Below are positions 56,332 through 64,000 of a stretch of DNA of 64,000 nucleotides, in pieces. Below the pieces are notes generated by a model. It ran no database searches. It was not told the DNA's origin and was given only the letters and a program-made list of their open reading frames with translations. The position numbers and the translations under genes were made by a program. This stretch comes from Epidermidibacterium keratini (GTDB lineage: Bacteria > Actinomycetota > Actinomycetes > Mycobacteriales > Antricoccaceae): positions 2,480,001-2,544,000 of the forward strand of contig NZ_CP047156.1 of NCBI RefSeq assembly GCF_009834025.1. The letters run 5' to 3'. Numbering within the stretch: position 1 is the stretch's first letter; every line of letters begins with the position of its first letter.

Positions 56332-57710
56332 GCACACCGGTCAACCCAGACGGCACCACCAGCGAGAACGTCGACGCGCCGAAGACCGCCGGCACCCAGA
56401 GCCGCGCACGCACGCTGTTTGGCATCGGCAGCGGAAACGCGATGGAGTGGTTCGACTGGAACATCTATGCGACGTTCGCGCCGTTCTTTGCCTCGCAGTT
56501 CTTCAACTCCAAGGACCCGGTGTCGGACGTGCTGAGCACCCTCGCGGTGTTTGCCGTCGGCTTCCTGGCCCGTCCGTTTGGCGGCCTGCTGTTTGGCTGG
56601 ATCGCCGACAAGAAGGGCCGCAAGCTCTCGATGTCGCTGACCATCGGCGTCGCCGCCGTCGGCAGCCTGGTCATCGGGCTCTCGCCGACGTACACCCAGA
56701 TCGGGGTGGGCGCGTCGCTGATCCTGCTGGTCGCAAGGCTCGGTCAGGGCCTGGCCCACGGTGGTGAGCTGCCGTCTGCGCAGACCTACATTGCCGAGAC
56801 CGCACCCAATGCCAAGCGCGGGCTGTGGTCGAGCCTGATCTACTTCTCCGGCACGTGCGGCATCATCATCGGCACGCTGATGGGCGCCGTACTCGCCACC
56901 GTGCTCACCGAAGAGCAGATGACCAGCTTCGGCTGGCGCATCCCGTTCATCATCGGTGGTCTGTTTGGGCTGTATGCGCTCTTCATGCGGCGCCGGATGT
57001 ACGAGACCGAGACGTTCGTCGAAGAGACGACGTTGGACGAGAAGCTCGAGAGCGCCGGCGGGCATCACGAGTCGATCTGGCAGACGATCAAGGCCCATCC
57101 CAAGCTGCTGTTCCAGGTCATCGGAATGGTCGCGGGCGCCACCGTCATCTACTACGTGTGGGCGGTATCGGCGCCGCAGTACGCGATCAACGTGCGCGGC
57201 ATTGATCCCGAGGGCGCGCTATGGGCCGGCGTCGGTGCCAATCTGATCTTCCTGATCGTGCTGCCGATCTGGGGCATCATCTCCGATCGCATCGGGCGCA
57301 AGCCGGTCATGCTGATCGCGCTGCTCGGACTTGCAGTGCTCTACTTCCCGCTCAACGCGATGATCGGTACGTCGGCGTTCAGCCTCTTCATCGCGATCTC
57401 GATCGCACTGATCTTCATGGGCGGATTCTCCTCGATCGGTCCTGCGGTGTTTGCCGAGATCTTCCCGACTCGCATTCGAGCGGTCGGGCTGGGCGTTCCG
57501 TACTCGATCTCGGTCGCGCTGTTTGGCGGTACGGCGCCGTACCTGCAAACGTTCTTCGCCGATCGCGGGATGAGCGCGACGTTCCAGTGGTATGCGATCG
57601 CTCTTGGCGTCATCTCCGCGATCGTCGTGCTGACTCTGCCGGAGACCAAGGGGATCGACTTGGCGCATGAGTCTGTCGGCGCGCATGGACGCCGCAAGGT
57701 CCGCGCCTAG
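56328..57710 (+). CDS. MFS transporter, metabolite:H+ symporter (MHS) family
   Basis: This 460-residue 12-helix protein has GIGSGNAMEWFDWNIYATFAPFFASQFF near the N-terminus (the MHS opening motif). FLARPFGGLLFGWIADKKGRKLSM is loop 2-3 and RLGQGLAHGGELPSAQTYIAETAPNAKRG is the helix 4-5 region. The MHS group includes proline/betaine, citrate, ketoglutarate and shikimate uptake. It is probably the importer of the substrate cleaved by the amidohydrolase upstream. Confidence 0.93.
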   Translation: MSTPVNPDGTTSENVDAPKTAGTQSRARTLFGIGSGNAMEWFDWNIYATFAPFFASQFFNSKDPVSDVLSTLAVFAVGFLARPFGGLLFGWIADKKGRKLSMSLTIGVAAVGSLVIGLSPTYTQIGVGASLILLVARLGQGLAHGGELPSAQTYIAETAPNAKRGLWSSLIYFSGTCGIIIGTLMGAVLATVLTEEQMTSFGWRIPFIIGGLFGLYALFMRRRMYETETFVEETTLDEKLESAGGHHESIWQTIKAHPKLLFQVIGMVAGATVIYYVWAVSAPQYAINVRGIDPEGALWAGVGANLIFLIVLPIWGIISDRIGRKPVMLIALLGLAVLYFPLNAMIGTSAFSLFIAISIALIFMGGFSSIGPAVFAEIFPTRIRAVGLGVPYSISVALFGGTAPYLQTFFADRGMSATFQWYAIALGVISAIVVLTLPETKGIDLAHESVGAHGRRKVRA

Positions 57711-58243
57711 CGGTGGGAGACCCAGGGTTGCTGGCCGGTTTCGACGAGCTTGCGAAGCAGCGCCGTACCGGTCTCCAGCTCCTCTTTGGTGAACGCAGAA
57801 GCCCACTTGCGCTCGCGGAGATTGTGCTCGTGGAAGACGTCGACCAGCTTGCGCGACCCATGGTCGGTGAGCTGGATCCGACGTCCTCGCGCGTCTCCCT
57901 CCACACCTGAGCGCTGCACGATTCCCTGACGCTCCAGGGTGTTTGCCAGAGACGTCACCGCTGGCTTGCTCATCCCAGTACGCCGGGCGGCGGCCCTCAG
58001 CTCGAGTGGGCCGTCGACCCAAAGCGTGAAGCACAGCCGAAACGCCGACCATGACCAGCCGGCCGGTCGGTGCACGCTGGATTCCAGGTCGTAGACGATC
58101 GCGTTGGTGACGCGATAGAGCAGCAGGACCATCTGCATCGCGTCGATGTCGATGCCTTCCATCCGCTGCGACACAGCGGTTTTTGCGTCCGCGACCAGGC
58201 CGAGAGAGTCGCCTGAGGTCTCGGACTCGGTCATGCCGCTCAT
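57707..58243 (-). CDS. MarR family transcriptional regulator
   Basis: This 178-residue winged-helix MarR protein includes the recognition region RAAARRTGMSKPAVTSLANTLERQGIVQRSGVEGDARGRRIQLTDHG (near 100-145). The C-terminus has the helix used for dimerisation. It is divergent from the MBL-hydroxylase-hmgA-fahA operon and should respond to an aromatic acid such as homogentisate or its precursor. The ATG at 58243 follows GAGGGAG. A palindrome lies in the shared promoter region. Confidence 0.92.
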   Translation of the reverse strand: MSGMTESETSGDSLGLVADAKTAVSQRMEGIDIDAMQMVLLLYRVTNAIVYDLESSVHRPAGWSWSAFRLCFTLWVDGPLELRAAARRTGMSKPAVTSLANTLERQGIVQRSGVEGDARGRRIQLTDHGSRKLVDVFHEHNLRERKWASAFTKEELETGTALLRKLVETGQQPWVSHR

Positions 58244-58300
58244 CTCGTCTCCCTCTAGGCCTTTACAACGCGGGACTTGCTTCATAGCATGATGCCAGAA

Positions 58301-58316
58301 CGTTAAAGGTTTAACG
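58301..58316. promoter_or_regulatory. MarR operator candidate CGTTAAA-GG-TTTAACG
   Basis: A perfect 7-bp inverted repeat around GG ends 12 nt before the start of the MBL gene and 58 nt upstream of the marR start. Its overlap with the likely transcription start of the catabolic operon would give repression of both directions. Confidence 0.7.
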
Positions 58317-58328
58317 AATGGAGCGGAC

Positions 58329-59291
58329 ATGGCGAAGGCATTCGCGTCCTCGGCCGATCTCGGCGAAAAAGCCGAGACCCTTGAGGTGCTCGCCGACGGC
58401 ATCTACGCGCTGACCGCCGAGGGCGATCCCAACATGGGCGCCATCGAAGCCGAGGACTTTGTCGTCGCCTTCGAGTCGCGGGCGACACCCAAGGCGACCC
58501 AGGACTGGCTGGCCCAGCTGCGCGAGCACACCGACAAGCCGGTCCGCTACTGCGTGCTCAGCCACTATCACGCCGTGCGCGTGCTCGGCGCTTCGGCGTA
58601 TGACGCGGAGTCGATCATCACCCACGAGACGACCCGCCAGCTCATCGACGAGCGCGGGCAGGCCGACTGGGACTCCGAGTACGGCCGGATGCCTCGGCTG
58701 TTTCGCGAACCGGAGACGATCCCCGGCTTGACCCATCCGGACCTCACCTTCACCGACACGCTGGTGATCCCGCTCGGCGGCGATCGCGGCGACCTGGAGC
58801 TGCGCTACTGCGGACGCGGGCACACCGCCGGCGACATCATCGCCTGGGTGCCGAAGCACAAGATCCTTTTTGCCGGCGACCTTGTCGAAGCGCAAGCTGC
58901 TCTCTACACCGGCGATGCCTTCCATTTCGACTGGCACGAGGGAACTCTCGACGCTGTCAAGGCACTCGGCGCCGAGCAGCTCATCGGAGGGCGCGGTGCG
59001 GTGGCACAGGGCCGGGAGGCGTGTGACGCCGCGATCGAGCAGACCCGCAAGTTCCTGCGCGGCATGATCGACAACGTAGGTGCGGTCCACAAACGTGGCG
59101 GATCGCTGAAGGAAGCCTTCGATGCGACGCACGCGGCCTTGGTTGACGACTTCGGGCAGTGGCCGATCTTCGAGCACTGTCTGCCGTTTGACGTCAAGCG
59201 GCTCTGGGACGAGTACGACGGCGTCGAGTGGCCGGCAATCTGGACAGCGCAGCTCGACCGCGAGGTCTGGGACCAGCTGCAGAACTCATGA
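58329..59291 (+). CDS. MBL-fold protein with altered metal ligands
   Basis: This 320-residue metallo-beta-lactamase fold protein is recognised by the beta-rich start (LEVLADGIYALTAEG), VLSHYHAVRVLGASAY (in place of the canonical HxHxDH: HYHAVR keeps two His and loses the Asp-His pair), RGHTAGDIIAWVPKHKILFAGDLVE, and IGGRGAV in place of the last metal His motif. One metal site may remain, or none of the usual chemistry. The gene opens the homogentisate operon; GGAG is 5 nt upstream. A role as a thioesterase or lactonase on an aromatic intermediate would be guesswork. Confidence 0.85.
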   Translation: MAKAFASSADLGEKAETLEVLADGIYALTAEGDPNMGAIEAEDFVVAFESRATPKATQDWLAQLREHTDKPVRYCVLSHYHAVRVLGASAYDAESIITHETTRQLIDERGQADWDSEYGRMPRLFREPETIPGLTHPDLTFTDTLVIPLGGDRGDLELRYCGRGHTAGDIIAWVPKHKILFAGDLVEAQAALYTGDAFHFDWHEGTLDAVKALGAEQLIGGRGAVAQGREACDAAIEQTRKFLRGMIDNVGAVHKRGGSLKEAFDATHAALVDDFGQWPIFEHCLPFDVKRLWDEYDGVEWPAIWTAQLDREVWDQLQNS

Positions 59292-60856
59292 TGATCACGC
59301 CGAGCCACAACGGTCGTGCCCGGCTGCCGGTCGCGGTGGTCGGAGCAGGGCCCGTGGGCCAGACGGCGGCGCTCTCGCTCGCACGGTGGGGTCTTCAGGT
59401 CGCCTTCTTCGACAAGCGTGCCGAGCGTGATCCCATTGGTAGCAAGGCAATCTGCCAGGCCCGCGACGTCCTCGACATCTGGGCCTCGCTGGGGACTGGC
59501 ACCGTACTGGCCGACGAGGGCGTCACCTGGACCACGGCGCGCACCTACTACCAGGGCCGCGAGATCGACTGCTGGCAGTTCGTCGATGCGGGGGAGTCGC
59601 CGTACCCGCCATTCGTCAATATCTCCCAGCAGCGCACCGAGGAGGTGCTCGACCGGTGCCTTGACGAGTCCGGCATCGACTGCAGGTGGGGCGTGGAGAT
59701 CACCGGCCTGGAGCAGTACGACGACCGGGTCACGCTCGAGGTTGATGGCCGGCCCGAGACGTTCAGCCATGTCGTGTTCGCGACGGGATCGCGCGGGTCG
59801 ATCCGGGAGCGTCTGGGCATCGACTTTCCCGGGCATACCTTCGATGACGCGTTTCTGATCTGCGACATCGAGGCCCAGCTGCCCGGGTGGGAGTTCGAGC
59901 GCCGTTTCCACTTCGACCCGGAATGGAACCCGGGCCGGCAGGTGCTGATCCACGCCTGCCCAAACTCGATCTATCGCATCGACTGGCAGGTGCCGCCGAC
60001 GTACGACCTCGACGCCGACGTCGCGAGCGGTGGTCTGGACCGACGCATCCGCCAGATCATCGGGGAGAGCACGCCGTACCGCATCGACTGGAAGTCGGTA
60101 TATCGCTTCCATTCCAGGCATGTTGACCAGATGGCGGCTGGGCGGGTGCTGCTGGCCGGCGACGTCGCACACCTCGTCGCGCCGTTCGGTGCACGTGGCC
60201 TCAACACGGGTGTCTTTGATGCCGACAACCTCGGGTGGAAGATCGCCTTCGACGCTTTCGGCTGGGCCGGTCCGCAGCTGCTGCCGTCGTACTCGACCGA
60301 GCGCGTCGCCGCTGCCAAGGAGAACGCCGAGATCGTCGACGCGACGATGGCGATGCTCGTGCCGCAGGACGCCGAGGCTGCGGCACGACGCAGCGAGATG
60401 CTGGAAGCGGCGGCGACTGGCGGTGGCATGCCGGTCGACTCGGGCCGCTTTGCCGAGCCTTACTGGTATGTCGACTCTCCGCTGACAACCGCCGACCCGT
60501 CGCGTCCGTTTGCTGGCCGCCCGCCGAAAGGACAGACACCGCCTGCGGCGCCGGGAATCATGCTTCCCGACGTACTCCTCGCTGACGGCACACGACTGCG
60601 CGATCACTGCCGCACCGCGATCACCCTCGTCGGGCCGGGCGCCTTGCCTCACGCTGCCGCGCCGATCCGTCAGCTCGACGCCGACTTGCTTACCGAACGT
60701 GCCCGAGACACGCTCGGCTACCGCGACGGCGAGACATGGGTGATGCGCCCGGATTGCTACATCGCAGGTATAGCAGCAGACTCCGCAAGCCTTGCCGCCA
60801 TCGTCGAGCGCACGCTCGGCTCCGTGACTTCCGACCAACCCGACCCAACGAGGTGA
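59288..60856 (+). CDS. FAD-dependent aromatic hydroxylase (MhpA/PHBH-like)
   Basis: In this 522-residue group A flavin monooxygenase, VAVVGAGPVGQTAALSLARWG near residue 14 binds FAD. VLLAGDVAHLVAPFGARGLNTGVFDADNLGWKIA near 287-320 is the second FAD motif (GD) typical of 3-hydroxyphenylpropionate/resorcinol hydroxylases, and the C-terminal thioredoxin-like tail is present. NADH-dependent ring hydroxylation is expected. Next to hmgA, the most sensible substrate is 3- or 4-hydroxyphenylacetate-like, giving homogentisate. It is coupled to the MBL gene by an ATGA overlap. Confidence 0.92.
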   Translation: MMITPSHNGRARLPVAVVGAGPVGQTAALSLARWGLQVAFFDKRAERDPIGSKAICQARDVLDIWASLGTGTVLADEGVTWTTARTYYQGREIDCWQFVDAGESPYPPFVNISQQRTEEVLDRCLDESGIDCRWGVEITGLEQYDDRVTLEVDGRPETFSHVVFATGSRGSIRERLGIDFPGHTFDDAFLICDIEAQLPGWEFERRFHFDPEWNPGRQVLIHACPNSIYRIDWQVPPTYDLDADVASGGLDRRIRQIIGESTPYRIDWKSVYRFHSRHVDQMAAGRVLLAGDVAHLVAPFGARGLNTGVFDADNLGWKIAFDAFGWAGPQLLPSYSTERVAAAKENAEIVDATMAMLVPQDAEAAARRSEMLEAAATGGGMPVDSGRFAEPYWYVDSPLTTADPSRPFAGRPPKGQTPPAAPGIMLPDVLLADGTRLRDHCRTAITLVGPGALPHAAAPIRQLDADLLTERARDTLGYRDGETWVMRPDCYIAGIAADSASLAAIVERTLGSVTSDQPDPTR

Positions 60857-60863
60857 CCTCCGC

Positions 60864-62048
60864 ATGGCCTACTACCGCGCCGTGGGCAACATCCCGCCGA
60901 AGCGCCACACCCAGCATCGCAATGACGATGGCAAGCTCTATTACGAAGAGCTGATGGGGGAGGAGGGATTCTCCGCAGACTCCTCGTTGCTGTATCACAA
61001 GTACATCCCCTCGACGATCACCGATTCACGACCGTGGGACCTTGGCTCACACAAGCTCGTGCCCAACCACCCGCTCAAGCCGCTGCACTTGAAGCTGCAC
61101 TCGCTGTTCAGTGATGAGGAGGCCGACAACCTCGATCCGGTGCGCGGCCGGCGGATGGTGCTGGGCAACGGCGACGTACGTATCTACTACTCGGTGTCGT
61201 CGGTGACGTCGCCGCTCTACCGCAACGCCGTCGGCGATGAGCTCGTCTACATCGAGGAAGGCTGGGGCACGGTCGAGACCGTCTTCGGCGTGCTCGACTA
61301 CCGCCAGGGCGACTACATCGTCATTCCACGCGCCACCAACCACCGCTACGTCCCCGGCGAGCGCACCCGCTTCTACATCGTCGAGGCAAACTCGCACATC
61401 AGCCCGGCCCGCAACTACCTCTCCAAGTACGGTCAGCTGCTGGAGCACTCACCCTTCTGTGAGCGTGACCTGACCGGACCCGGCGACGTGCTGCTGCACG
61501 AGGAGGAGAACGTCGACATCTACGTCAAACACCGCACCAGCGAAGGCATTGTCGGCACCATCTTCACTACGCCGCAGCACCCGTTCGATGTCGTTGGGTG
61601 GGACGGCTGCCTGTATCCCTACACGTTCAACATCAGCGACTACGAACCGATCACCGGACGGGTGCACCAGCCGCCGCCGACCCACCAGGTCTTCGAGGGC
61701 AACAACTTCGTGGTCTGCAACTTCGTGCCGCGCAAGGTCGACTATCACCCCCTGTCGATCCCAGTTCCCTACTACCACTCGAATGTGGACTCCGACGAGG
61801 TCATGTTCTACTGCGGCGGCAACTACGAGGCCCGCAAGGGCTCGGGGATCGGCAATGGGTCGATCTCGCTGCATCCCGGCGGCCACGCGCATGGTCCACA
61901 GCCCGGTGCCTATGAGAAGTCGATCGGGGTCGAGTACTTCGACGAGCTCGCGGTCATGGTCGACACCTTCCGTCCGCTGGAGCTCGGCGAAGGCGGCCTC
62001 GCCAGCGACGACGAGTCCTATGCCTGGAGCTGGGCGACGAATGCCTAA
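60864..62048 (+). CDS. hmgA: Homogentisate 1,2-dioxygenase
   Basis: This 394-residue iron enzyme opens homogentisate to maleylacetoacetate. Motifs are the N-terminal GNIPPKRHTQH and the iron site of the family: PYYHSNVDSDEVMFYCGGNYE (His near 305, Glu near 312) and SLHPGGHAHGPQPGAYEKS (His near 341). The length is slightly short of the 430-440 residues of the human/Pseudomonas form, as in several actinobacterial enzymes. The ATG follows GAGGTGACC. It lies 7 nt after the hydroxylase gene. Confidence 0.95.
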   Translation: MAYYRAVGNIPPKRHTQHRNDDGKLYYEELMGEEGFSADSSLLYHKYIPSTITDSRPWDLGSHKLVPNHPLKPLHLKLHSLFSDEEADNLDPVRGRRMVLGNGDVRIYYSVSSVTSPLYRNAVGDELVYIEEGWGTVETVFGVLDYRQGDYIVIPRATNHRYVPGERTRFYIVEANSHISPARNYLSKYGQLLEHSPFCERDLTGPGDVLLHEEENVDIYVKHRTSEGIVGTIFTTPQHPFDVVGWDGCLYPYTFNISDYEPITGRVHQPPPTHQVFEGNNFVVCNFVPRKVDYHPLSIPVPYYHSNVDSDEVMFYCGGNYEARKGSGIGNGSISLHPGGHAHGPQPGAYEKSIGVEYFDELAVMVDTFRPLELGEGGLASDDESYAWSWATNA

Positions 62049-62826
62049 CCGGCTGACCCGAGGACTCGTTGACGATGCGGGGCTGTTTCCGCCGACCTCG
62101 CTGCAGATGCGCGATGCGCTCGCCCGCAACGCTCGCGACCGAGCGGCCGGGCCACCGATGCTGACCAACCGGTTCCTGGTCACGAGCGCCGACCTACCGG
62201 CGATGCTCGATGCATTGCCTGCGGGGCAAGAGATCGAGATTGGGCTGATCCACGGGGGTGACGTCGATTCGCTGTCGGCGGCGCTCGAGCAGGCGGGCAG
62301 CCTCCTGCGGCATATCGAGCTCAAGGGCCTCGACGCGTGGGACGGCGTACCCGACGACCTGCCGGTATACGTGGAGGCAGTACCGCGTTCCGGACTGCCC
62401 GAGGTCATCGAAGCGACGCAATCGGCGAAACGCAGCGCACCCACCGGCGTCAAGGTGCGATGTGGGGGAGTGAGCGCGGATCTCTTTCCGTCAGTCGACG
62501 AGCTCGCGACGGCGCTGCGCGCCATCATCAGTGCGGGCGTGCCGATGAAGGCGACCGCCGGACTGCATAGCGCTGTCCGCAATACAAATCCCCAGACCGG
62601 TTTTGACCACCACGGGTTCGTCAACCTGCTCGTGGCGATCGACACCGCCTTGCGGGACGGAGATGTCGCGGCTGCCCTGGCCGAACGCGACCCGGAGACC
62701 CTCGCCCAACGGGCCCGCGGGATCGATCGCGAGGGCGCGGAGCAGGTGCGAAGCGTGCTCGTCTCGTACGGGTCATGCAGCACGTCCTCACCTGTGCAGC
62801 AGGCACGCGAGCTCCGCTTGCTGTAA
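62041..62826 (+). CDS. Uncharacterised alpha/beta protein in the homogentisate operon
   Basis: This 261-residue soluble protein has alternating strands and helices: TNRFLVTSADLPAMLDAL, EIEIGLIHGGDVDSL, LPVYVEAVPRSGLPEVI, GVKVRCGGVSADLFPSVDELATALRAI and GVPMKATAGLHSAVRN. This pattern suits a TIM-barrel fold. The opening LVDDAGLFPPTSLQMRDAL recalls a conserved actinobacterial family without assigned function. Its ATG lies inside the end of hmgA (8-bp overlap) and fahA follows 25 nt later. No maleylacetoacetate isomerase of the known zeta-GST or MaiA type is in the window, so a role in that step is conceivable but unproven. Confidence 0.8.
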   Translation: MPNRLTRGLVDDAGLFPPTSLQMRDALARNARDRAAGPPMLTNRFLVTSADLPAMLDALPAGQEIEIGLIHGGDVDSLSAALEQAGSLLRHIELKGLDAWDGVPDDLPVYVEAVPRSGLPEVIEATQSAKRSAPTGVKVRCGGVSADLFPSVDELATALRAIISAGVPMKATAGLHSAVRNTNPQTGFDHHGFVNLLVAIDTALRDGDVAAALAERDPETLAQRARGIDREGAEQVRSVLVSYGSCSTSSPVQQARELRLL

Positions 62827-62851: not shown

Positions 62852-64000
62852 ATGTCTGATGTTTCGGCCACCGACGGTTTTGGCCTGGCGAACCTGCCCT
62901 ACGGAGTCTTCAGCACTGAAGGCCAAGCGCCCCGAGTCGGCGTGCGCTACGGCGACCGGGTGCTCGACCTGGCTGCGGCACTCGATGACCCGGTCTTCAG
63001 TGAGCCGACCCTGAACGCGTTCATGTCTCTCGGCCGGGCCGCGTGGGACGACACCCGCGCCCGCGTGACCGAGTTGCTCTCCACGCAGCCGGACCACCCG
63101 GCGCTGATCGAACTCAGCGACGTGACGCTGCACCTGCCGATCCATGTGCCGGACTACGTCGACTTCTACGCATCCGAGCATCACGCCAGCAACGTCGGTC
63201 GTATCTTCCGTCCGGACGCCGAGCCGCTGCTGCCCAACTGGAAACACATGCCGGTCAGCTATCACGGGCGTGCGTCGACGGTCGTGGTGTCCGGCACCGA
63301 CATCGTCCGACCTCAAGGCCAGCACAAGGCCCCGGATGCTGACGCGCCGACCTTCGGCGCGTGCCAGCGTCTTGACGTCGAGGTCGAGCTGGGGTTCGTC
63401 GTCGGGATGGGGGCCGAGCTTGGCGCGCCAGTGAGCGGTGCCGACTTCGCCGAGCACGTCTTTGGCGCCGTACTGCTCAACGACTGGTCGGCGCGCGATA
63501 TCCAAGCTTGGGAGTACGTCCCACTCGGCCCGCACCTGGGCAAGTCGTTTGCCACCTCGATCAGCCCCTGGGTCGTGCCCCTCGCAGCGCTTGAGGCCGC
63601 CCGGACGAGTACGCCGCCGCGCACGCACGATTTGCTGCCATATCTGCAGGACGGCGACGACTGGGCGCTGGAGATCGACCTCGAACTGGACGTCAACGGT
63701 GCCGTACTGTCGCGACCGCCGTACGCCGGGATGTACTACTCCGGCGCGCAGATGCTGGCTCACCTGACCGTCAACGGCGCCCGCCTCAACACCGGCGACC
63801 TCTATGGCTCGGGAACCGTATCCGGCACGCAGCTCGAGCAGCGTGGCTCGCTGCTCGAGCTGTCGTGGGGTGGCAAGGAGCCGATCACCCTGCCGGACGG
63901 GTCGACGCGCACGTTCCTGGAGGACGGCGATATCGCCACGATCCGCGGCTCGTTCGTCGGTGCCGGCGGCGAGCGATGCTCCTTCGGCGAGGTCACGGGC
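62852..64000 (+). CDS. fahA: Fumarylacetoacetase, 3' end outside window
   Basis: The frame from ATG 62852 stays open to the last base (383 codons), so it has no stop inside the window; the family is about 400-420 residues. FAH-type marks are FGLANLPYGVFS at the N-terminus, the catalytic/metal region HVPDYVDFYASEHHASNVG (Asp-Glu-His), LPNWKHMPVSYHGRAST, DVEVELGFVVGMG and LLNDWSARDIQAWEYVPLGPHLGKSF. It hydrolyses fumarylacetoacetate to fumarate and acetoacetate, the last step after hmgA. AAGGA lies about 12 nt upstream, somewhat far. Confidence 0.95.
   Translation, partial: MSDVSATDGFGLANLPYGVFSTEGQAPRVGVRYGDRVLDLAAALDDPVFSEPTLNAFMSLGRAAWDDTRARVTELLSTQPDHPALIELSDVTLHLPIHVPDYVDFYASEHHASNVGRIFRPDAEPLLPNWKHMPVSYHGRASTVVVSGTDIVRPQGQHKAPDADAPTFGACQRLDVEVELGFVVGMGAELGAPVSGADFAEHVFGAVLLNDWSARDIQAWEYVPLGPHLGKSFATSISPWVVPLAALEAARTSTPPRTHDLLPYLQDGDDWALEIDLELDVNGAVLSRPPYAGMYYSGAQMLAHLTVNGARLNTGDLYGSGTVSGTQLEQRGSLLELSWGGKEPITLPDGSTRTFLEDGDIATIRGSFVGAGGERCSFGEVTG

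What the first reader, a model, noticed from the sequence alone, without database searches (positions are those of the whole stretch)
62041..62826. Unknown protein between hmgA and fahA where an isomerase is expected
The pathway needs maleylacetoacetate to fumarylacetoacetate isomerisation between the products of hmgA and fahA. No glutathione-type isomerase is visible, and actinobacteria generally lack glutathione. The gene occupying the position encodes a TIM-barrel-like protein of unknown function, overlapping hmgA. It could be a thiol-independent or mycothiol-dependent isomerase, or an accessory enzyme.
Basis: inference. Interest (0 to 1): 0.66.

Follow-up and report, generated by a model that had tools for sequence, protein, structure and literature searches.

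The report
Unnamed fahA-linked enzyme, probable missing isomerase
A bacterial gene that databases call 'hypothetical' sits beside the last gene of the tyrosine/homogentisate breakdown route in members of five bacterial phyla, has an enzyme-like conserved core, and is the best candidate for the one step of that route for which no known enzyme was found in the genomes tested.

Summary
X (window 62041-62826, 261 aa) overlaps hmgA by 8 bp, precedes fahA by 25 bp, and has no significant Pfam, NCBIfam, PHROGs or PDB-sequence match. The genome has no maiA-type isomerase. X belongs to an unnamed family. In one phylum draw it occurs in 43 of 108 fahA+ and 0 of 188 fahA- genomes. It lies directly upstream of fahA in 30 of those 43, in 14 of 15 actinobacterial X+ genomes of another draw, and in 24 of 24 plasmid records. 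maiA reached its cut-off in 0 of 54 actinobacterial and 0 of 296 phylum-draw genomes. A homologue model (pTM 0.81) is a barrel nearest to deoxyribose-phosphate aldolase; near-invariant E93, E112, K138, R140, K170 and C246 lie at strand ends. Copies away from fahA often lack the Cys. Best reading (inferred, about 0.55): a glutathione-free maleylacetoacetate isomerase using its own Lys/Cys. Against it: many hmgA-fahA genomes have neither X nor maiA, so a third solution or spontaneous isomerisation must exist. No activity is shown.

The parts
62041..62826 (+). X: unnamed-family protein, 261 aa; proposed glutathione-free maleylacetoacetate isomerase
62041..62048 (+). 8-bp overlap of X start (ATG 62041-62043) with hmgA stop (TAA 62046-62048); likely translational coupling (inferred)
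62452..62469 (+). K-V-R-C-G-G motif (residues 138-143), end of a barrel strand in the homologue model
62548..62568 (+). K-A-T-A-G-L-H motif (residues 170-176), next barrel strand; K170 candidate Schiff-base lysine (inferred)
62770..62781 (+). G-S-C-S motif (residues 244-247), end of the last strand; C246 candidate nucleophile (inferred)
60864..62048 (+). hmgA-type homogentisate 1,2-dioxygenase, short 394-aa form
62852..64000 (+). fahA, fumarylacetoacetase (runs past the window end; 389 aa in the genome)
59228..60856 (+). FAD-dependent aromatic hydroxylase upstream in the same direction (start uncertain)
58329..59291 (+). MBL-fold metallo-hydrolase upstream in the same direction
57707..58402 (-). 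MarR-like regulator, divergent (start uncertain, frame overlaps the MBL gene; named by eye, conserved in some relatives, no family scan run)

Best explanation
X is the maleylacetoacetate (MAA) cis-trans isomerase of these organisms, unrelated to the glutathione-dependent zeta-GST MaiA. It is a single-domain (beta/alpha)8 barrel. MAA binds with its carboxylates held by R140 and other conserved basic/polar residues. A lysine (K170, possibly helped by K138 and E112) activates the conjugated C4 ketone as a protonated imine or by hydrogen bonding. C246 adds reversibly to the maleyl double bond, which rotates and is released as the trans form, fumarylacetoacetate, for FahA. Shown: gene order, family, fold model of a homologue, residue conservation, absence of maiA. 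Inferred: substrate, reaction, roles of the residues.
For: (1) Position: X is directly upstream of fahA on the same strand in 14 of 15 actinobacterial X+ genomes (draw) and 30 of 43 X+ genomes of the phylum draw around L001's genome, plus 5 of 43 about 3 kb away; 24 of 24 plasmid records carrying X have fahA next to it (coordinates; many near-copies). (2) Specificity: X in 43 of 108 fahA+ and 0 of 188 fahA- genomes; the same 43 with a second, larger profile partly built from these genomes. (3) Pathway gap: maiA over its cut-off in 0 of 54 actinobacterial genomes, 0 of the 3 source genomes of L001-L003, 0 of 296 of the phylum draw. (4) Compact plasmid cassettes: hppD-X-fahA-hisC-hmgA-permease in Priestia, hppD-hmgA-X-fahA in Tsukamurella, hmgA-X-fahA with CoA-transferase in Streptomyces Alt3 and with CoA-transferase and thiolase in Rhodococcus. 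X is the gene without an assigned role. (5) Two copies not next to fahA still sit with route genes: X-hppD-hmgA in G526, MBL-FMO-X in G332. (6) Near-invariant E93, E112, K138, R140, K170 and C246 map to the C-terminal ends of strands in the model, where barrel enzymes keep active sites (established knowledge). (7) Seven of the nine fetched copies without C246 at its place lie away from fahA (L046, L047, L109, L161-L164). (8) X and FahA distances co-vary (r 0.73, 56 loci).
Against: X is absent from 19 of 34 actinobacterial fahA+ genomes and 65 of 108 in the phylum draw, and none of these has maiA over cut-off. 15 fetched fahA loci hold hmgA but no X; for 6 of them (L093, L141-L144, L168) the genome has an X copy elsewhere, for 8 none was found, and for the Nocardia record L198 none was found in that record. 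So X is not required wherever the route runs, unless a third isomerase exists. Two X copies beside fahA have lost C246 (L103, L090); L047 and L109 have a Cys one residue earlier. Intact copies also occur without any route gene in the fetched stretch (G416 in L167; L003). No member has a tested activity; no sequence link to any known isomerase; hhalign finds no link to the aldolase family. The window's own protein gave only a poor model (pTM 0.43); the good model is of its 35%-identical homologue in L001. X-HmgA and HmgA-FahA distances co-vary about as strongly (0.76, 0.78 against 0.83 for X-FahA, 33 loci). Where maiA exists (Pseudomonadota) mutual exclusion with X was not tested beyond plasmids.
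Confidence: 0.55

Rival explanations
1. X acts in the same route but on another reaction: a repair or side-step enzyme (for example an aldolase/hydrolase clearing reduced or misdirected products such as succinylacetoacetate, or acting on acetoacetate), while MAA isomerises spontaneously with low-molecular-weight thiols or is accepted by FahA.
For: The nearest folds are class I aldolases. Many hmgA-fahA genomes manage with neither X nor maiA. In 23 of the 56 fetched loci with X and fahA, no hmgA was found in the fetched stretch.
Against: X was found only in fahA genomes of the phylum draw (43 in fahA+, 0 in 188 fahA-) and stands in compact cassettes in which the isomerase is the step without a gene.
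Confidence: 0.25
2. X is a thiol-cofactor-dependent isomerase (mycothiol, bacillithiol or other).
For: Known cis-trans isomerases of related substrates use glutathione (MaiA, recalled) or mycothiol (maleylpyruvate isomerase; PMC3937715, passages). The own genome has 8 MDMPI_N proteins, consistent with a mycothiol user.
Against: One conserved family serves Actinomycetota, Bacillota, Cyanobacteriota, Planctomycetota and Balneolota, whose main thiols differ (recalled), and has its own conserved Cys. No match to PF11716 or to GST families among the hits.
Confidence: 0.1
3. X is an accessory (scaffold, stabiliser or regulator) of FahA or HmgA without catalysis.
For: Tight coupling to fahA; losses of C246 in two fahA-linked copies (L090, L103).
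Against: Active-site-like set of near-invariant polar residues at the C-terminal ends of strands.
Confidence: 0.07
4. The isomerase is another gene: the enoyl-CoA hydratase listed as 'mai' in a Rhodococcus genome paper (PMC4591350, passages) or one of the MDMPI-family proteins elsewhere in the genome.
For: The paper's table lists 'mai' as an enoyl-CoA hydratase-isomerase near hmgA/fahA. Eight MDMPI_N genes exist in the window's genome.
Against: A homologue of one such hydratase (from L187) lies in 3 of 101 fetched fahA loci, X in 56 of 101 (loci were partly chosen for X). The nearest of the 8 MDMPI genes is over 200 kb from the cluster.
Confidence: 0.08

Closest known systems
Maleylacetoacetate isomerase MaiA/HmgC (zeta-class glutathione transferase, TIGR01262)
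   Same: Proposed reaction and place in the route; maiA lies next to fahA (L199) or one gene from hmgA (L200) on two Alphaproteobacteria plasmids.
   Different: No sequence match of X to the model; different predicted fold; the X genomes tested lack maiA over cut-off.
Mycothiol-dependent maleylpyruvate isomerase (MDMPI/DinB-like, PF11716)
   Same: Actinobacterial answer to the analogous problem in the gentisate route (PMC3937715, passages).
   Different: No sequence match; X is modelled as a barrel with its own Cys.
[quoted passage not shown]
   Same: The first 33 of 50 structure rows (Z 13.8-12.1, 3.5-4.6 A rmsd, about 200-237 residues aligned) are DERA or designs on DERA. By eye, both have a conserved Asp near the N terminus, a Lys and then K-x-T/S-x-G on successive strands and a G-x-S/C motif on the last strand, in the same order.
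   Different: 8-17% identity; no Pfam DeoC hit; hhalign probability 0.24%. No evident counterpart in X of DERA's second lysine motif KxxGG after K167 (by eye).
Maleate cis-trans isomerases of the Asp/Glu racemase group (recalled)
   Same: Cysteine-based, cofactor-free cis-trans isomerisation of a maleyl double bond.
   Different: Different fold and two-cysteine site (recalled); no such Pfam family among the hits of X.

Membership tests
MaiA, zeta-class GST (TIGR01262) | match to the family model | tested here: not met
   P0001 has no NCBIfam hit up to E 1; TIGR01262 is not among the families hit by any of 62 members at E 0.1
MaiA, zeta-class GST (TIGR01262) | maleylacetoacetate isomerase activity with glutathione | not testable with these tools
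   needs an assay
Mycothiol-dependent maleylpyruvate isomerase (PF11716) | MDMPI_N domain | tested here: not met
   no such hit in P0001 or the 62 members at E 0.1
DERA / DeoC class I aldolase | sequence-family match (Pfam DeoC) or profile-profile link | tested here: not met
   no DeoC; hhalign X profile (62 rows) vs 8 DERA sequences, probability 0.24%, E 0.26; other settings no better
DERA / DeoC class I aldolase | (beta/alpha)8 barrel with DERA-like arrangement | tested here: inconclusive
   homologue model, pTM 0.81; DERA fills the first 33 rows, Z up to 13.8, but homocitrate synthase (12.1) and aldo-keto reductases (11.2) follow closely; Foldseek's list mixes DERA with aldo-keto reductases and others
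DERA / DeoC class I aldolase | Schiff-base lysine in K-T-S/A-T-G on the sixth strand | tested here: inconclusive
   K170-A-T-A-G on a strand of the model; Schiff base not tested
Homogentisate pathway gene set (functional grouping of X) | confined to and neighbouring pathway genes | tested here: met
   43 of 43 X+ genomes of the phylum draw are fahA+; 24 of 24 plasmid records adjacent to fahA; exceptions to adjacency listed in the report
Maleylacetoacetate isomerase by function (EC 5.2.1.2) | catalyses MAA to FAA | not testable with these tools
   context and residue evidence only

The most novel reading that the evidence does not exclude
X founds a new enzyme family: a cofactor-free maleylacetoacetate cis-trans isomerase on an aldolase-type TIM barrel that activates the substrate as a lysine iminium ion and isomerises it by reversible cysteine addition. 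It is a natural counterpart of the iminium chemistry so far engineered into DERA, and replaces the glutathione enzyme in lineages without glutathione.
Probability: 0.33. Interest if true: 0.8.

Novelty: new variant of a known kind. Interest (0 to 1): 0.62.

Why it matters
The homogentisate route is a main road for tyrosine, phenylalanine and hydroxyphenylacetates, yet its middle enzyme is known as a glutathione-dependent protein (recalled) that was found over its cut-off in none of the 350 actinobacterial and phylum-draw genomes tested. A single unnamed family in that slot in five phyla, on plasmid cassettes as well as chromosomes, would fill the gap, give a role to many 'hypothetical' genes and offer a cofactor-free isomerase. 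It makes the question directly testable with three proteins and a spectrophotometer.

Tried and rejected
First structure model, of the window protein itself with 4 rows (A1), was poor (pTM 0.43) and not used.

Profile searches of the PDB sequences with 19 and 62 X sequences gave only chance-level hits (best E 0.037 and 0.038). Pfam and NCBIfam scans gave no hit above cut-off for P0001 and only scattered weak hits for the 62 members; PHROGs gave none for the two proteins scanned.

Sequence homology to DERA was tested and not found. The likeness is of fold and motif order only.

Gene fusions: 11 long frames holding X were checked against six window proteins; none hits another of them.

Enoyl-CoA hydratase as the isomerase: 3 of 101 loci, rejected as a general answer. 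MDMPI: 8 genes in the genome, none near.

A replacement gene in loci without X: eight neighbours from L079, L080, L089, L141, L150 and L152 scanned (of ten proteins): TetR, PF06983, HPPD-type glyoxalase domains (2), biopterin hydroxylase, flavin-reductase-like (2), acetyl-CoA hydrolase/transferase; no evident isomerase. Not exhaustive. Gene calls in the high-GC loci are crude and some are wrong frames.

Paper searches for a named glutathione-free or actinobacterial maleylacetoacetate isomerase found none in the listings (open-licence PMC papers only). Passages were seen of PMC11889516, PMC11012174, PMC9400869, PMC10950700, PMC3937715 and PMC4591350; no paper was read whole.

The Fisher p of 2e-22 ignores kinship and should not be taken at face value. 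In one search, 143 of 296 genomes matched the fahA model at E 0.001; I kept the 34 over 260 bits and dropped 109 with weak matches to wider FAH-family proteins. Genome searches score only a capped number of first-look candidates per genome, so single misses are possible.

Full report
WHAT IS THERE. Codon-position G+C matches the neighbours. Upstream in the same direction lie an FAD-dependent hydroxylase and an MBL-fold hydrolase. HmgA is a short form: it passes the two Pfam HgmA models but not the NCBIfam equivalog cut-off (65 of 510 bits); FahA passes its cut-off. X matches nothing above cut-off in Pfam or NCBIfam. The 62 family members give only scattered weak hits, P0001 and the L001 protein none in PHROGs, and the profiles only chance-level PDB hits.

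THE GENOME. The window lies in a 4.02-Mb single-contig genome. It has no maiA match at E 0.001 and eight MDMPI_N proteins, the nearest over 200 kb away.

THE FAMILY. X occurs in 23 of 61 genomes (own included) and, by one scan of named genomes limited to close peptide matches, in a Balneolales, a Planctomycetia and a Vicinamibacteria MAG; in the first two it is next to fahA, in the third no fahA was found in the fetched 14 kb. I fetched 24 of the X places. X is next to fahA in 21; the exceptions are L046, L047 and L109, divergent copies without C246 at its place. Further draws quantify the link. Actinobacterial draw: 34 genomes have a true fahA (over 260 bits) of 296 searched; X is in 15 of the 34 and directly upstream of fahA in 14 of the 15. 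In a smaller 119-genome draw X is in 7, all 7 with a true fahA. Phylum of the L001 genome (Balneolota by NCBI name): fahA in 108 of 296; X in 43 of 296, all inside the 108; directly upstream in 30, about 3 kb off in 5, elsewhere in 8. The second X profile was partly built from these genomes, so it is a check of sensitivity, not independent. Plasmids: fahA in 119 of 72,556 records; X in 24 records (union: Streptomyces 11, Priestia 6, Pseudonocardia 2, Rhodococcus 2, Tsukamurella, Nonomuraea, Kovacikia 1 each), each with fahA adjacent (coordinates). Many are near-copies. X is labelled 'hypothetical protein' in the 22 records with a feature there; two have none. A Nocardia farcinica record has hmgA-fahA and no X.

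THE GAP. maiA over its cut-off: 0 of 54 actinobacterial genomes, that is the 34 fahA+ and 20 further X+ relatives (two genomes had weak sub-cut-off hits); 0 of 3 source genomes; 0 of 296 in the phylum draw. In the 14 control genomes the model rings in 3, over the cut-off in 1. On plasmids a maiA query hits 220 records (60 seen); in two Alphaproteobacteria plasmids looked at, maiA stands beside fahA (L199) or one gene from hmgA (L200), with no X in the locus; a third, L197, has hmgA-fahA with neither nearby. Compact cassettes show the point: Priestia hppD-X-fahA-hisC-hmgA-permease, Tsukamurella hppD-hmgA-X-fahA, Rhodococcus hmgA-X-fahA with CoA-transferase and thiolase nearby, the cyanobacterium Kovacikia with HPPD, hmgA, X and fahA. 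From hydroxyphenylpyruvate or homogentisate to fumarate and acetoacetate, each holds a gene for every step but the isomerase, plus X. Whether maiA exists elsewhere in these named organisms was not searched.

FOLD AND RESIDUES. The window protein itself modelled poorly. Its homologue in L001, closer to the family consensus (355 bits against 227 for the window protein's frame with the refined profile), gave pTM 0.81, mean pLDDT 79: a (beta/alpha)8-type barrel. Foldseek's first hit is a deoxyribose-phosphate aldolase (E 2e-4), mixed with aldo-keto reductases and others; VIA-align puts DERA entries or DERA-based designs in the first 33 rows, Z 13.8-12.1, with homocitrate synthase (12.1) and aldo-keto reductases (11.2) close behind. 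There is no sequence-profile link to DERA, so this is a likeness of fold, not family membership. In the 62-row alignment D11 is kept in 61, E93 61, E112 58, K138 60, R140 59, K170 61, H176 57, N195 61, R237 60, C246 57. E93, E112, K138, R140, K170 and C246 fall within two residues of the C-terminal ends of strands. The order D - K - KxTxG - GSCS resembles DERA's D16 - K137 - K167TSTG - GxSS, with C246 near where DERA has a serine; this is by eye.

CYSTEINE AND POSITION. In 97 copies (some the same gene fetched twice), nine lack C246 or K170 (a tenth, L180, is an alignment gap). Seven of these are away from fahA (L046, L047, L109, L161-L164); L046 still has hmgA beside it, and L047 and L109 have a Cys one residue earlier. 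Two are beside fahA (L090, L103). Intact copies away from fahA: G526, in an X-hppD-hmgA array; G332, MBL-FMO-X; G416 and L003 without pathway genes in the fetched stretch.

HOW IT MOST LIKELY WORKS. Inference: MAA is a cis-enedione; a thiolate adding to its double bond allows rotation, as glutathione does in MaiA (recalled). X has its own conserved Cys and a Lys in a motif like that of DERA's Schiff-base lysine. DERA can do iminium catalysis: an engineered variant adds nitromethane through an iminium ion at Lys-167, from a low activity in the wild type (PMC9400869, passages). A Lys-activated, Cys-catalysed isomerisation is therefore chemically reasonable but unproven.

RESULTS AGAINST. 19 of 34 actinobacterial and 65 of 108 other fahA+ genomes have no X and no maiA over cut-off. 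Among fetched loci, 15 have hmgA with fahA but no X in the locus. In six of these (L093, L141-L144, L168) the genome holds an X copy elsewhere: Cys-less in G393, G474 and G486, intact in G332 and G416, not read in G424. In the others (L079-L082, L084, L089, L152, L157 and the Nocardia record L198) none was found, so the route seems to run without X in places. A third isomerase, direct use of MAA by FahA, or spontaneous isomerisation must cover these. X-FahA distances correlate (r 0.73, 56 loci), but in the 33 loci with all three genes X-FahA (0.83), HmgA-FahA (0.78) and X-HmgA (0.76) are alike. On the FahA tree the X label needs 16 changes, at least 7 forced by starred branches, so gain or loss happened repeatedly.

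LITERATURE. Searches of open-licence papers listed no glutathione-free maleylacetoacetate isomerase. A Rhodococcus genome paper lists hmgA AII08874, fahA AII08876 and, as 'mai', the enoyl-CoA hydratase-isomerase AII08877 (PMC4591350, passages); the number between hmgA and fahA, AII08875, does not appear in the passage. That it is X is my inference from numbering. In R. globerulus proteomics HmgA and HmgB are named as found; HmgC is named only as part of the general or Cupriavidus route in the passages seen (PMC11889516).

VERDICT. A real, widespread, unnamed family bound to fahA; most likely the missing isomerase, with a credible but untested catalytic proposal.

Noticed in passing
window 58329-60856: An MBL-hydrolase plus FAD-hydroxylase pair also flanks hmgA/fahA on two Alphaproteobacteria plasmids (L197, L200), so it may be a portable module of the homogentisate route; the MBL step is unassigned.
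   Followed up: partly
L141 2042-2935, L150 7773-8624, L152 4719-5540: A flavin-reductase-like gene lies next to or near fahA in three loci without X of the phylum draw (Pfam confirmed for L141 and L150; L152 by eye).
   Followed up: partly
L046 8100-8993, L047 8306-9178, L109 7003-7875: Divergent X copies (TNSLH instead of TAGLH, no C246 at its place) away from fahA in relatives; possible change of function.
   Followed up: partly
L161-L164: Cys-less X homologues at a site beside HU-like genes (named by eye), a site where L145 carries fahA instead; suggests an old X-fahA pair that split.
   Followed up: partly
L092 4416-8154 (G332): MBL-FMO-X array without hmgA or fahA next to it; fahA and hmgA lie on another contig of that genome.
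   Followed up: partly
window 60864-62048: The HmgA is a short 394-aa form far below the NCBIfam equivalog cut-off although plasmid relatives are annotated as homogentisate 1,2-dioxygenase; that model may miss this subfamily.
   Followed up: no
L181, L182 (Priestia plasmids): A plasmid-borne tyrosine degradation cassette (hppD, X, fahA, hisC-annotated aminotransferase, hmgA, permease) in Bacillota.
   Followed up: partly
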